A stretch of 64,000 nucleotides of DNA from Sphingobacterium rhinopitheci (lineage in GTDB: Bacteria > Bacteroidota > Bacteroidia > Sphingobacteriales > Sphingobacteriaceae). Shown here piece after piece: positions 4,758-9,921 of this stretch (its first letter is position 1; each line of letters opens with the position of its first letter). The DNA lies in NCBI RefSeq assembly GCF_022627575.1, contig NZ_JADEYQ010000011.1, positions 1 through 64,000 of the forward strand, read 5' to 3'. A program made the translations under genes and the position numbers. Below the pieces are notes generated by a model. It had not been told where the DNA came from and searched no databases. It was given only the letters and a program-made list of their open reading frames with translations.

Positions 4758-4827
4758 AACAAAAAACCGCTAGCTAATTATAAGCTGGCGGTCATATAAA
4801 CTTCAACAAAAGGTTTTATAAAATATA

Positions 4828-7236
4828 TTATAATGCTCTTTGTTTTTCATCACTAGCATTATCTGAACGCTTTATCGTTTGTTTTAAGTTACCAAACTTA
4901 TAATTGAATGTTAGGCGTACAGATTGTGAATCATAGTATTGATAGATTCTAGAGTTAAATTGGTTAAAACTAGTAAACACATTATTGTGGTCAGAATGGA
5001 AAATATCCGTTACTGCTAATTTTAGGGAGCTACGTTGATCCTTGAAATTATAACTAGCCCCAAGATCTACATTTACACGTTGCTGAATTTCGTACACGTT
5101 GTAAATAAATTTAGAATTGTAACGAACAGACATTTCAGCATTCCATTGTTTTGTCAGCTTAAATGTACTATTAGAGTTACCTTGCACAAAAGCAGAACCT
5201 TGATTTACTACCGACCCCGCAATAGGACCTTTGAAATGCATATATACTCCTGTAATATTATTATACATGGACCATATTTTACCTATACGCACAGGTATAG
5301 TAAGGTTCAAATAACTGGTTGACTGTTCGCCCAAATTTTCTCTAATCACCCAAGTCGTTTTTAATTCATTGTCTTGACCTAAGCTTTCGACGATAGCATC
5401 TTTAGTAATATCATGTCCTAAGGCAATATTGAACATCTTGTATAGTGTATAGTTTAAAGAGAAGCCATCGGTATACTGCGGATTCAAATAAGGATTACCT
5501 TTGTTATAAGTTCTCTTATCGATATAATATTCAAAAGGATTCAAATAACGATAATTTGGTCTTGTAACCTTACGTGCATAAGAAAGTGATAACACATGAT
5601 TTTCATTCATATTATAACTTAATGCTGCTGAAGGAAATAAATCTAAATAATCTCTTTTTACTCTTTTACTTTCTGTTATAGAGTGGCCATCAGAAACAGT
5701 ATATTCCGCTCTAAGGCCGGCTTTTATTGCCCATTTATTGATATCCTTAGCATAATCTAAATATCCAGCAGCAATTTGTTCTACATAATTGAATGTATTG
5801 GAACGTTTAGCATCATTGACCCAATTATTGTTTATGAGTTCACTAAAATCTAATGCATTATCAGACTGTACATTGCTATACTTCAAACCTGCTTCCATTA
5901 TTCCTTTCCAAAGACTTTGTGTATAATCCAGCTTTGCGGCTAAAATGCGAATATCAACTGAAGTATAATTTTTTTCAAATTCAGGATCATATTTACTGCT
6001 TAGATCAGGCAATAAAGTATAGTAATCATAATTAGTATTTGCTTTAGTATTGAAAAAACTATAATCTAAGTCAGCTGTTAATTTTCGTCCTGTAGTATCG
6101 ATTTTAAATTCATTATTGGCATTAAACGAATAACGGTTGAAATGCTCCATGGTAGCCGTTTTAGCATCTAAAATAGAATCCACTTGACCAAAATTTGGCC
6201 CCATCAAAGTCCGCCCCGTAATGTAACTATCTTCCGGATTATTGATACCACTAAACTGAACCATAAATGTATTACGATCCGATGTTTTTTGCTCTATTCC
6301 TATTTTATAATTATGACTAACGTCAGAATATTTACTTACCGATGTTTGATCAAAAACAGTATTACCATCCACTCCTGGGATTGTACGCTCCAGTCTTAAA
6401 TCATTTTCTCGCGTATTGTTATTATACGAGTAATTTGTAAATAAGGTTGTATTATCTTTTCTATAGTTCAAATTTAAATAAGTATTCCCTCTTGTCTTTT
6501 TAGCGATTGCACCGGAAGCCATAAAAGTACCATTGAAGCCTTCTATTTTATTCTTCTTCATTACGATATTAATGACACCAGCCGCTCCTTCAGCATCATT
6601 TTTTGCAGAACGTGTAGTAGACAGTTCAATACTTTTAATCTGACTTCCATCCGTACTTTTCAATAGCGATGCTAACTGATCACCTGTCATATATGTCTGT
6701 CTACCATCAATCGTAACACTAACCCCCTGTTGCCCCATCAAGCTGATATTATCATCCTTGTCAACATTTACGCCAGGTGCTCTTTTCAATACTTCAAGTG
6801 CATTATTGCCCGCGCTTATAGTAGAATTCTCTACATTCATCACGAGCATACCATTTTTACTTTGTATGGTTGGTAATTGGCCTACTATAGATACAGCATC
6901 TATCTCTTGTTGTTTGGTATTTAAAACAACAGTTGGCAGCAAAATCGTGTTCCCTTTTCCTTCAAATTCTACGGACATATACTTGGCATAGCCTATTGCA
7001 CTAACCTCGACTACCATCGTACCTTCAGGGTAATCCAAGAATGAATATTCACCTACCTCATTAGTTACTGTTGTTTTTAATATCCCTTTAGCAGTAGCAG
7101 TCAGTAAATACACAGAGGCATTGCTTACGACTTCATTTTTTTCATTAACAACTTTTCCTCTGATTAAGTGTTGCTGATTGGCCATAGCTATCCCCGCACA
7201 ATATATTGCGCAAAGAATTAATAATATTCTTTTCAT
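4828..7236 (-). CDS. Outer membrane beta-barrel protein (TonB-receptor-like)
   Basis: An 802-residue outer-membrane protein. A signal peptide covers about residues 1-19. A carboxypeptidase-regulatory-like beta-sandwich follows (about 22-105, beginning HLIRGKVVNEKNE). A plug-like domain (about 125-230) contains LEVLKRAPGVNVD and the EGAAGVINIVMKK segment, and the rest is a long barrel of alternating aromatic strands. It resembles the OMP_b-brl_3 family rather than classical SusC receptors. It is third in the padR-pspC-barrel operon, 48 bp after the PspC gene. The cargo is unknown; similar proteins are often annotated as TonB-dependent receptors. Confidence 0.85.
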   Translation of the reverse strand: MKRILLILCAIYCAGIAMANQQHLIRGKVVNEKNEVVSNASVYLLTATAKGILKTTVTNEVGEYSFLDYPEGTMVVEVSAIGYAKYMSVEFEGKGNTILLPTVVLNTKQQEIDAVSIVGQLPTIQSKNGMLVMNVENSTISAGNNALEVLKRAPGVNVDKDDNISLMGQQGVSVTIDGRQTYMTGDQLASLLKSTDGSQIKSIELSTTRSAKNDAEGAAGVINIVMKKNKIEGFNGTFMASGAIAKKTRGNTYLNLNYRKDNTTLFTNYSYNNNTRENDLRLERTIPGVDGNTVFDQTSVSKYSDVSHNYKIGIEQKTSDRNTFMVQFSGINNPEDSYITGRTLMGPNFGQVDSILDAKTATMEHFNRYSFNANNEFKIDTTGRKLTADLDYSFFNTKANTNYDYYTLLPDLSSKYDPEFEKNYTSVDIRILAAKLDYTQSLWKGIMEAGLKYSNVQSDNALDFSELINNNWVNDAKRSNTFNYVEQIAAGYLDYAKDINKWAIKAGLRAEYTVSDGHSITESKRVKRDYLDLFPSAALSYNMNENHVLSLSYARKVTRPNYRYLNPFEYYIDKRTYNKGNPYLNPQYTDGFSLNYTLYKMFNIALGHDITKDAIVESLGQDNELKTTWVIRENLGEQSTSYLNLTIPVRIGKIWSMYNNITGVYMHFKGPIAGSVVNQGSAFVQGNSNSTFKLTKQWNAEMSVRYNSKFIYNVYEIQQRVNVDLGASYNFKDQRSSLKLAVTDIFHSDHNNVFTSFNQFNSRIYQYYDSQSVRLTFNYKFGNLKQTIKRSDNASDEKQRAL

Positions 7237-7284
7237 AAATATTTTAAGTAATGGTTGTTGTTATCTTCCTATTCTAATAGACAC

Positions 7285-9018
7285 TTAGTTAGAAGAATTG
7301 GTAGCTGTGGGGTCCAATTTCTCCGCCTTTCGCTCAATAGCTTCTGCAGCTCTTTCAATTTTTCGTTCCATTTCCTTTGCTTTGCGTTCAATTTCTTCCC
7401 CTGCTCTCTCCAGTTCACGCTCTGCGGTATCCATATCAAGACTACTATCTATGTCTGTTAACGGATAGAAATCAGGAGCACACGTAAGGCCAGTCTTCAT
7501 CATAACCCATTCCGTACTTTTTACGTTATCATTACTATAGGAATTTTGACAAGCATAATAATCAAACCCTCTGACTTTATAACGCAATGATTGATCAATC
7601 ACAATTATAGCACCAATAGGCAAATAAACTACTGCCGTCACCGACTGATCTCTAAAATCATTAGATTCACCTAAAGAGAAATGACTATCAAAGGTAATTT
7701 TCCCATTATCCTGTATAGCGATATAATTGATATCTGACGCTCTTTTGGTTGCGGCTTGATATGTTTTTCCTTTAGCATAATAATTATACTGAATATAAGG
7801 TGCTTCCCCTTCATTCAAATATTCGAATCTAATGTTGATATCACTTTTTAGATAAGCAGAAAGTTCTTCACCATCTACTTGAATTTTATATTTCTTCTGT
7901 CCATTGTCTAATGTTGAAGCTTCTATTACTCTAATATCCTTTTCGGAAAAATAATAAATATCCTGCTTAACTAAAGGCTTATCAATTTTAATGGTACTAT
8001 CTTCCTTAAATTCTCTTGCTCCTAATAAAGCGAAGAACACAACCAATAAAACAGAAGCAATCCAACCAGCCCATAAGCTTAGGGACAAATAATTATTCAT
8101 TGGCTTGGTCTTAAAAAGAATACGAATAAGTACATGAAAAAGCGCTAAAAATGGGATTGTAATAGCAAGTACGCCGGCAAATAAAGCTAAAAAAGCCTGT
8201 TCTTGTGGCAATACATCTAATCCTGGGAAAGCCATTTGATTTTGTAGACCAATAATGGCCGAACCAAACCCTATTAAAGTAATCAACATCCCAAAAATTG
8301 TCATTCCCGAGAAGATCAATAACATAAACACAAAACCTTTACCTATAATACTAAAAATTGTAGCAATTCCATTGCTTACAGATTGGCTACCTTTGGATTG
8401 CTGTCCATTTTCATTAGACAAATCTTCTTTATAATGTTCCAGCTCCTCTTCGTAATTCTTTTTAAAATTCTGCAGATTTGGCTCTTCACCACGCATCGCC
8501 ATTCTATCCGCTCTACTAGTAGCAATAGGCATTACAATCCATAAGACGATATATAATAAAACACCAGATCCTCCGAAAATAAAGAACAAAACAAATAATA
8601 TACGTACCCATTTGGTTTGTATGCCAAAATAATAACCTAAGCCACTACAAACGCCTCCTAATACTTTATCATCCCCATTACGCATCAGCTTCTTTTCATA
8701 AGCTAAACGAGAAGGTTCTTCTTTATTCTCGTTCACATAAGGTCCATCGGCTATATCTTCAAAATCGCTAACTCTACCCATCTGAGCAATTACGATTTCG
8801 ACATCTTGTGCAGCAATAACCTCTTTCTTTCCTTGCTGAATACGCTCAGTAAACATCTCTGCTACACGATTTTCAATATCCAATAATATCTCCCCACTAT
8901 CAGCAGATTGACTGAAATGTCTTTTTATTTCAATCATATAACTTCTTAGTGTTTCATAAGCATCTTCTTCAATATGAAATACGATACTATTAATATTTAT
9001 AATTATGGTCTTATTCAT
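7285..9018 (-). CDS. PspC-domain membrane protein
   Basis: A 577-residue inner-membrane protein. An N-terminal cytoplasmic region (1-107) of the type found in Bacteroidota PspC proteins precedes a PspC domain at about 108-166, with VLGGVCSGLGYYFG at 119-132 and a transmembrane helix at about 138-164. Several further membrane helices follow, then a soluble domain, and a final 50-residue tail of E/R/K-rich heptads (about 525-570) that reads as a long charged helix or coiled coil. PspC proteins elsewhere belong to phage-shock membrane-stress responses. It is co-transcribed with the padR gene upstream (20-bp gap) and the outer-membrane barrel downstream. Confidence 0.88.
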   Translation of the reverse strand: MNKTIIININSIVFHIEEDAYETLRSYMIEIKRHFSQSADSGEILLDIENRVAEMFTERIQQGKKEVIAAQDVEIVIAQMGRVSDFEDIADGPYVNENKEEPSRLAYEKKLMRNGDDKVLGGVCSGLGYYFGIQTKWVRILFVLFFIFGGSGVLLYIVLWIVMPIATSRADRMAMRGEEPNLQNFKKNYEEELEHYKEDLSNENGQQSKGSQSVSNGIATIFSIIGKGFVFMLLIFSGMTIFGMLITLIGFGSAIIGLQNQMAFPGLDVLPQEQAFLALFAGVLAITIPFLALFHVLIRILFKTKPMNNYLSLSLWAGWIASVLLVVFFALLGAREFKEDSTIKIDKPLVKQDIYYFSEKDIRVIEASTLDNGQKKYKIQVDGEELSAYLKSDINIRFEYLNEGEAPYIQYNYYAKGKTYQAATKRASDINYIAIQDNGKITFDSHFSLGESNDFRDQSVTAVVYLPIGAIIVIDQSLRYKVRGFDYYACQNSYSNDNVKSTEWVMMKTGLTCAPDFYPLTDIDSSLDMDTAERELERAGEEIERKAKEMERKIERAAEAIERKAEKLDPTATNSSN

Positions 9019-9038
9019 TATCTTTCGTTTTATAGTGC

Positions 9039-9377
9039 TTAATTATTAAATCTGCCAGCTATAGAAACCTCTACAGCATATAAAAGTTCCTTCCAAGTAA
9101 CATCCAGTCTACTTAATACCTCCTGCCCTTCAGCGGTAACTTCATAATACTTCCTAGGAGGGCCTGATGTAGATTCTTTCCAGCTATAACTCAATAGTCC
9201 ATTATTTTTCAGCCTCGTCAATAGAGGGTACAGCGTGCCCTCTACAATCAACAATTCAGCTTTTTTTAATTCAGCTATAATGTCCGAAGCATAAATTTCA
9301 CCCCTAGAAATAATAGAAAGTATACAGTATTCAAGTATACCTTTTCTCATTTGGGTTTGTGTATTTTCAGCTATCAT
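9039..9377 (-). CDS. PadR-family transcriptional regulator
   Basis: A 112-residue winged-helix regulator. The N-terminal half (about 8-85) carries the PadR pattern: LEYCILSIISRGEIYASDI, the recognition-helix region EGTLYPLLTRLKNNGLL, and the wing PPRKYYEVTAEGQEVL. PadR proteins are usually repressors that answer a ligand. It is first in an operon with the PspC protein and outer-membrane barrel. Its promoter (TTG at 9414-9416, 21 bp, TATCTTTG at 9385-9392) is flanked by two copies of TAGTACT(A), good candidates for its own operator; the 5' untranslated region is only a few bases. Confidence 0.92.
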   Translation of the reverse strand: MIAENTQTQMRKGILEYCILSIISRGEIYASDIIAELKKAELLIVEGTLYPLLTRLKNNGLLSYSWKESTSGPPRKYYEVTAEGQEVLSRLDVTWKELLYAVEVSIAGRFNN

Positions 9378-9384
9378 AATAATA

Positions 9385-9428
9385 CAAAGATATATCCTTT
9401 AGATAGTACTTTGCAATACATAGTACTA
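9385..9428 (-). promoter_or_regulatory. padR promoter with candidate autoregulatory operator
   Basis: The minus strand reads TTG (9414-9416), 21 bp, TATCTTTG (9385-9392), a full promoter match. Two near-identical palindromic octamers flank the -33 element: ATAGTACT at 9403-9410 and TAGTACTA at 9421-9428, 17-18 bp apart. A dimeric repressor bound there would block the polymerase. The promoter is seen directly; the operator role is inferred from position and symmetry. Confidence 0.6.
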
Positions 9429-9540: not shown

Positions 9541-9921
9541 GTGAATTACTTTATTAATTATATTTGGGCGATACTTTGGGGCGCTATTATTTGTTTATTC
9601 TTGTTATTACCTTCTAATAGTTATAATAGTATACCAATGTTCCCCGGAATAGACAAAATGGTACATTTAGGCATTTTCTTTGTGCAGGCTACATTGCTTT
9701 ATTGGGAAGCAAGCATGAAATCTAATCGTACAGCCAACAAATGGATCATCATCTTAAAAGTAATTCCTACAACAGCCGTATTTGCTGTAATGACTGAACT
9801 GGCTCAAATGTATCTTACTAATACAAGATCTGCTGATCCTTGGGATGTATTTGCTGATATCGTAGGCGTGGGTATGGCTACCTTTTCGTTCATATTGATA
9901 TATAAAAGAGTAAAGAAATGA
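9541..9921 (+). CDS. VanZ family membrane protein
   Basis: A 126-residue protein with four hydrophobic segments and the VanZ-like signature: an N-terminal helix, the conserved DKMVHLGIFF at about 38-47, and a late acidic pair in DPWDVFADIVG at about 100-110. VanZ relatives are linked to envelope or glycopeptide tolerance, but the function of stand-alone forms is unknown. The start is GTG; no upstream ATG fits, and a promoter-like box ends 4 nt before it. The stop codon overlaps the ATG of a tiny lipoprotein gene (ATGA). Confidence 0.85.
   Translation: MNYFINYIWAILWGAIICLFLLLPSNSYNSIPMFPGIDKMVHLGIFFVQATLLYWEASMKSNRTANKWIIILKVIPTTAVFAVMTELAQMYLTNTRSADPWDVFADIVGVGMATFSFILIYKRVKK

What the first reader, a model, noticed from the sequence alone, without database searches (positions are those of the whole stretch)
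4828..9428. Self-controlled PadR-PspC-outer-membrane-barrel operon
padR, a PspC protein and a TonB-receptor-like barrel are spaced 20 and 48 bp apart on one strand. The padR promoter is flanked by two TAGTACT-type palindromes across the -33 box, a layout for repression. An inner-membrane stress protein coupled to an outer-membrane barrel under one local regulator would form an envelope module. I know PadR-PspC pairs in Bacteroidota, but I am not aware of a described role for the barrel in them.
Basis: partly seen in the sequence, partly recalled or inferred. Interest (0 to 1): 0.5.

Follow-up and report, generated by a model that had tools for sequence, protein, structure and literature searches.

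The report
Autoregulated envelope-stress operon with outer-membrane barrel
In Sphingobacterium a small DNA-binding protein probably switches itself, a membrane stress sensor and an outer-membrane barrel on and off together, from a DNA site that is also found at the same pair of genes in distant relatives.

Summary
The genes and gaps (20, 48 bp) are as described. The two "palindromes" are arms of one 25-bp inverted repeat (9404-9428) over the -33 TTG of padR. The window genome has one such site (up to 3 mismatches), one PadR, one PspC and no PspA. In 120 loci that I chose around pspC, padR lies just upstream in all. The operator is within 300 bp of padR in 61/61 genus (window included), 40/40 family and 14/20 class sequences. 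Of 30 class loci fetched by the operator alone, 26 hold padR and pspC. The pair fits the described HAAS-PadR/PspC-Toastrack systems, though its HAAS domain is only weakly recognisable. The TonB-receptor-like barrel follows pspC in 59/60 genus, 18/40 family and 1/20 class loci. In related genera the operator also precedes other secreted genes, once another barrel. Best reading: an autorepressed envelope-stress switch whose surface output in this lineage is a barrel. PadR binding, co-transcription and the signal are inferred. New variant of a known kind.

The parts
9404..9428 (-). Predicted PadR operator: 25-bp inverted repeat that includes the -33 TTG (9414-9416)
9385..9392 (-). -7 box TATCTTTG of the padR promoter; it starts 11 nt after the repeat in 106 of 115 padR sites
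   Evidence: consensus recalled
9039..9377 (-). padR, 112 aa, the only PadR-family match in the genome
7285..9018 (-). pspC, 577 aa: HAAS-like N-terminal domain, PspC, LiaI-LiaF-TM and Toast-rack domains, C-terminal helix; the only PspC match in the genome
7237..7284 (-). 48-bp gap: no match to TAnnTTTG and no operator
   Evidence: sequence printed
4828..7236 (-). Barrel, 802 aa: CarboxypepD_reg domain, weak plug, OMP_b-brl_3 barrel with the fold of TonB-dependent receptors
4758..4793 (-). Hairpin followed by a run of T, a likely terminator after the barrel (the simple terminator scan did not list it)
   Evidence: -13.9 kcal/mol, z -4.04, 0 of 200 shuffles as stable

Best explanation
The three genes form one operon read from the padR promoter and ending at the hairpin after the barrel. 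PadR binds the 25-bp repeat over the -33 element and represses the operon, itself included. PspC is the inner-membrane sensor; its HAAS-like N-terminal domain passes an envelope-stress signal to PadR and lifts repression, so that PadR, PspC and the TonB-receptor-like barrel rise together. The padR-pspC-operator core is old in the class; the barrel is the output that this lineage keeps under it. Shown by sequence: order, domains, operator position and conservation, single copies in the genome. Inferred: PadR binding and repression, co-transcription, the PspC-PadR contact, the signal, the barrel's role.
For: padR upstream of pspC in 120 of 120 chosen loci. Operator near padR in 61/61, 40/40 and 14/20 sequences, 1.47 bits per column in class loci against 0.46 upstream. 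Class loci fetched by operator alone: PadR in 27 of 30, PadR and PspC in 26. One operator, PadR and PspC in the genome. Barrel next to pspC in 59 of 60 genus loci, gap at most 60 bp in 28 of 59 and at most 5 bp in 10. Hairpin after the barrel. An operator upstream of another OMP_b-brl_3 gene in L190. Listeria LltR, a PadR with a DUF1700 membrane protein and a DUF4097 exoprotein in its operon, represses all three (PMC6624303, passages).
Against: No binding or transcript data. The barrel is absent next to pspC in 20 family loci (2 more uninformative) and 19 of 20 class loci, lost in G030 and broken in L080. Linkage changed at least 7 times on a quick tree. 20 unlinked barrels have no operator. 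168 of 295 class genomes have no site with up to 3 mismatches. The window's N-terminal domain matches no Pfam HAAS model and lacks GxP. Two linked family loci have a promoter-like match in the gap.
Confidence: 0.6

Rival explanations
1. The regulated unit is padR-pspC only; the barrel is a neighbouring uptake receptor with its own expression, kept in place by shared history.
For: Barrel missing next to pspC in 20 of 40 family and 19 of 20 class loci; unlinked relatives without operator, 0 of 20; promoter-like matches in the gap of L103 and L112; gaps above 100 bp in some genus loci.
Against: 59 of 60 genus loci keep it, also where the barrel is down to 41% identity; gap of at most 5 bp in 10 of 59; hairpin after, not before, the barrel; a second barrel with its own operator in L190.
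Confidence: 0.25
2. PadR answers a small molecule that it binds itself, as PadR-2 proteins such as LftR may, and PspC is a product of the operon, not its sensor.
For: LftR has a dimer cavity and binds ethidium (PMC6457526, passages). The window PadR is a 112-aa protein with 41 PDB relatives at E up to 0.001.
Against: The constant partner in 120 chosen loci is a multi-domain PspC protein; the three genes include no efflux pump; the other targets that I could assign look secreted.
Confidence: 0.15

Closest known systems
[quoted passage not shown] 2024, PMC11237479; passages and sections 26 and 28 read)
   [quoted passage not shown] no pspA nearby.
   Different: HAAS only weakly recognisable, GxP not kept in the genus; outer-membrane barrel as third gene; a defined operator. 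The words TonB and beta-barrel do not occur in that paper's main text.
Listeria LltR operon, lltR-lmo0600-lmo0601 (Hauf et al. 2019, PMC6624303; passages and section 8 read)
   Same: PadR autorepressor, then a multi-spanning DUF1700 membrane protein, then a third envelope gene; repression of all three shown there by RNA-seq.
   Different: Third gene is a DUF4097 exoprotein, not a barrel; membrane protein lacks the PspC layout as described; other phylum.
PDB 5h20, PadR-family protein
   Same: Closest solved PadR, E 5.8e-38 over residues 3-102.
   Different: Its operator and partners were not seen. It may be BF2549 of B. fragilis (Lee et al. 2017, seen only in a reference list; not held); that identity is a guess.
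TonB-dependent outer-membrane receptors (PhuR, PfeA, FecA and others)
   Same: Predicted fold, Foldseek E down to 1.6e-20.
   Different: 9 to 14% identity in the rows shown; OMP_b-brl_3 family; Plug model just below its cut-off (22.4 against 23.9 bits); substrate unknown.

Membership tests
HAAS-PadR system | Stand-alone PadR-like gene coupled to the membrane protein gene | tested here: met
   120 of 120 chosen loci
HAAS-PadR system | HAAS domain, three helices with a kink at a GxP motif | tested here: inconclusive
   Pfam HAAS matches a class homologue (L138 fragment, 24.8 bits, cut-off 27) and not the window. Model: hairpin plus three helices, third interrupted. GxP in 0 of 60 genus, 2 of 40 family, 13 of 20 class proteins
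[quoted passage not shown]
HAAS-PadR system | Neighbourhood without pspA | tested here: met
   No PspA match in the genome
HAAS-PadR system | Membrane protein acts on PadR | not testable with these tools
   needs an interaction assay
LltR-type operon | DUF4097-type exoprotein as third gene | tested here: not met
   Third gene is an OMP_b-brl_3 barrel
PadR-2 subfamily | About 100 residues with the conserved wHTH tyrosines | tested here: met
   112 aa; both tyrosine motifs in 118 of 120 PadR proteins; motif placement by eye from PMC6457526 passages
TonB-dependent transporter | 22-stranded barrel with plug | tested here: inconclusive
   Fold matches such receptors; strands not counted exactly; Plug below cut-off; plug region modelled at lower confidence
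TonB-dependent transporter | TonB box and TonB-powered uptake | not tested
   a TonB-box-like stretch was noted only by eye

The most novel reading that the evidence does not exclude
Bacteroidia share an old envelope-stress switch, PadR plus HAAS-PspC on a strongly conserved 25-bp operator, and lineages place different surface proteins under it: a TonB-receptor-like barrel in Sphingobacterium, GIN/DUF2807 proteins or small lipoproteins elsewhere. An inner-membrane sensor would thus set the make-up of the outer surface.
Probability: 0.45. Interest if true: 0.65.

Novelty: new variant of a known kind. Interest (0 to 1): 0.47.

Why it matters
HAAS-PadR signalling was proposed from gene neighbourhoods. 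A conserved operator makes it testable with one shift assay and one deletion in a group whose envelope-stress response is little known (my judgement), and it names candidate outputs, among them an outer-membrane barrel.

Tried and rejected
Two separate palindromes: rejected, they are arms of one repeat. Lack of a promoter before the barrel as proof of co-transcription: dropped, since the pattern finds a full promoter before 0 of 59 barrels, 0 of 59 divergent vanZ genes and 1 of 25 LOG genes, against 105 of 120 padR genes. A second operator in the pspC-barrel gap: none above score 12 (that matrix was trained on the padR sites). Operator at unlinked barrels: 0 of 20. A variant site seen in 8 genus genomes: the one read (L192) has no match to the matrix, taken as chance. 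PDB sequence search with the PspC alignment: four matches, E 0.024 to 0.38, not believed. Foldseek of PspC: nothing at E 0.001 or better; best a Dot/Icm chain (E 0.0021), then Bacteroidota and clostridial adhesin-like proteins. Papers: ten searches combining PspC, PadR, Bacteroidetes or Bacteroidota, Toastrack, HAAS, DUF2807, B. fragilis and 5H20 listed no description of this operator or of a barrel in the operon; most subscription journals are not held. PMC9239133 (passages) suggests a beta-lactam role for Bacteroidota PspC and has no mention of PadR.

Full report
Observation. On the minus strand lie padR (9039-9377), pspC (7285-9018) and an OMP_b-brl_3 barrel (4828-7236), with gaps of 20 and 48 bp. 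Upstream is one 25-bp inverted repeat, 9404-9428, with the -33 TTG inside it and TATCTTTG 11 nt after it. The promoter reading uses the Bacteroidota consensus from recall. Named relatives of the barrel at 52-70% identity are Sphingobacterium records, so I take the window to be a Sphingobacterium.

Loci. I read 120 loci around pspC from other genomes: 60 of the genus (L032-L091), 40 of other genera of the family (L092-L131) and 20 of other families of the class (L132-L151). I chose them from the PspC matches, mostly the fuller ones; they are not a random sample. PspC itself was found in 89 of 99 relatives, that is 29 of 39 outside the genus, and in 148 of 151 family genomes (which counts short PspC-only matches).

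Core pair. padR lies upstream of pspC on the same strand in all 120 loci, -44 to 214 bp away, with median gaps of 25, 11.5 and 22 bp for genus, family and class. PspC carries PspC, LiaI-LiaF-TM and Toast-rack domains. Its N-terminus is modelled as a hairpin and three helices, the third interrupted. A class homologue matches Pfam HAAS below cut-off, and the window does not match. GxP is present in 13 of 20 class, 2 of 40 family and 0 of 60 genus proteins. This fits theme (i) of the HAAS-PadR systems of Ravi et al. 2024, with a HAAS domain that has drifted.

Operator. Within 300 bp of padR the best match to the 25-mer is at least 21 of 25 in 61 of 61 genus sequences (window included), at least 19 in 40 of 40 family loci and at least 18 in 14 of 20 class loci. 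Random 300-bp pieces of the same loci average 13.5; 24 of 600 reach 18, and pieces overlapping the operator were not removed. Of the six class loci below 18, four have a site further upstream, one of them weak (L136, L137, L141, L145). In 14 class loci the operator columns carry 1.47 bits against 0.46 upstream. The -7 box starts 11 nt after the repeat in 106 of 115 sites.

Genome searches. With up to 3 mismatches, sites were found in 76 of 99 relatives, 106 of 151 family genomes and 127 of 295 class genomes; these sets overlap. The reversed-pattern control hit 0, 2 (G138, G153) and 0 genomes in the rows listed. In the genus, 59 of 60 genomes have a site; the exception, G022, has its pspC 345 bp from a contig end. 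Thirty class loci were returned for the pattern alone: PadR is in 27, PadR with PspC in 26; three of the thirty are from genomes already read. In nine of them the site is 422 to 830 bp from padR. The window genome has one site, one PadR, one PspC and no PspA.

Barrel. It follows pspC in 59 of 60 genus loci (in L080 it is broken into two frames), 18 of 40 family loci (2 more uninformative) and 1 of 20 class loci. The gap is at most 60 bp in 28 of 59 genus loci and at most 5 bp in 10, one of these an overlap that depends on my start choice. In 58 of the 59 genus relatives the best match to the window barrel lies beside pspC by coordinates. The exception is G030, which has lost it and kept the operator. 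A quick tree of 97 barrels (77 linked, 20 unlinked; L080 and the open-ended L107 left out) groups the genus and g43 linked copies with support 89, needs at least 7 changes of linkage and has several long branches. The model resembles TonB-dependent receptors. A hairpin with a T run follows the gene, though the simple scan listed no terminator. None of 20 unlinked barrels has an operator within 400 bp; L190 does have one upstream of another OMP_b-brl_3 gene.

Other targets. In the family search I judged 24 sites not to belong to padR and read all of them (L173-L190, L193-L196, L198, L199). By my reading the first gene downstream is a small lipoprotein-like or signal-bearing protein in 17; the nine of these that I scanned have no family at its cut-off. 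It is a GIN/DUF2807 protein in 3 (L193 and L199 scanned; L194 by resemblance, with a weak site), and a barrel in 1. Two sites abut a large ORF that I did not get scanned (L183, L196) and one is cut off by a contig end (L198). Signal peptides were judged by eye. In L288 and L290 a secreted protein that looks GIN-like sits between operator and padR (by eye).

Mechanism and comparison. An operator over the -33 element of the regulator's own promoter is the layout of an autorepressor. The Listeria LltR operon shows the logic by experiment: lltR, lmo0600 and lmo0601 rise 107- to 151-fold in the lltR mutant (PMC6624303, passages). I infer that PspC lifts PadR repression under envelope stress and that the barrel is the output in this lineage. 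The core pair is of a known kind. I did not find the operator, its spread, or the barrel in the ten paper searches named under Tried and rejected. A 2017 paper on a B. fragilis PadR could not be read and may already report binding to a related site.

Noticed in passing
L173-L182, L184-L189, L195: In other genera of the family the same operator stands upstream of small secreted or lipoprotein-like genes of three sequence types; those scanned have no Pfam family at its cut-off. A possible PadR regulon in trans.
   Followed up: partly
L193, L194, L199; L288, L290: Operator upstream of tandem GIN/DUF2807 proteins (L193, L199 by Pfam; L194 by resemblance), and an operator, GIN-like gene, padR, pspC order in L288 and L290.
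   Followed up: partly
L296, L300, L301: A 117 to 133-aa secreted-looking protein that ends in NFKTL lies between operator and padR.
   Followed up: no
window 9378-9392: Only 7 nt separate the -7 box from the padR start codon, so the padR transcript may be nearly leaderless; most genus loci show the same spacing.
   Followed up: no
L080; L036; G134 contig C100: Barrel broken into two frames in one species, lost in another, and apparently in tandem beside pspC in a third.
   Followed up: no
window 9541-9921: A VanZ-like gene diverges from padR; it was found upstream of padR on the other strand in 59 of 60 genus loci.
   Followed up: no
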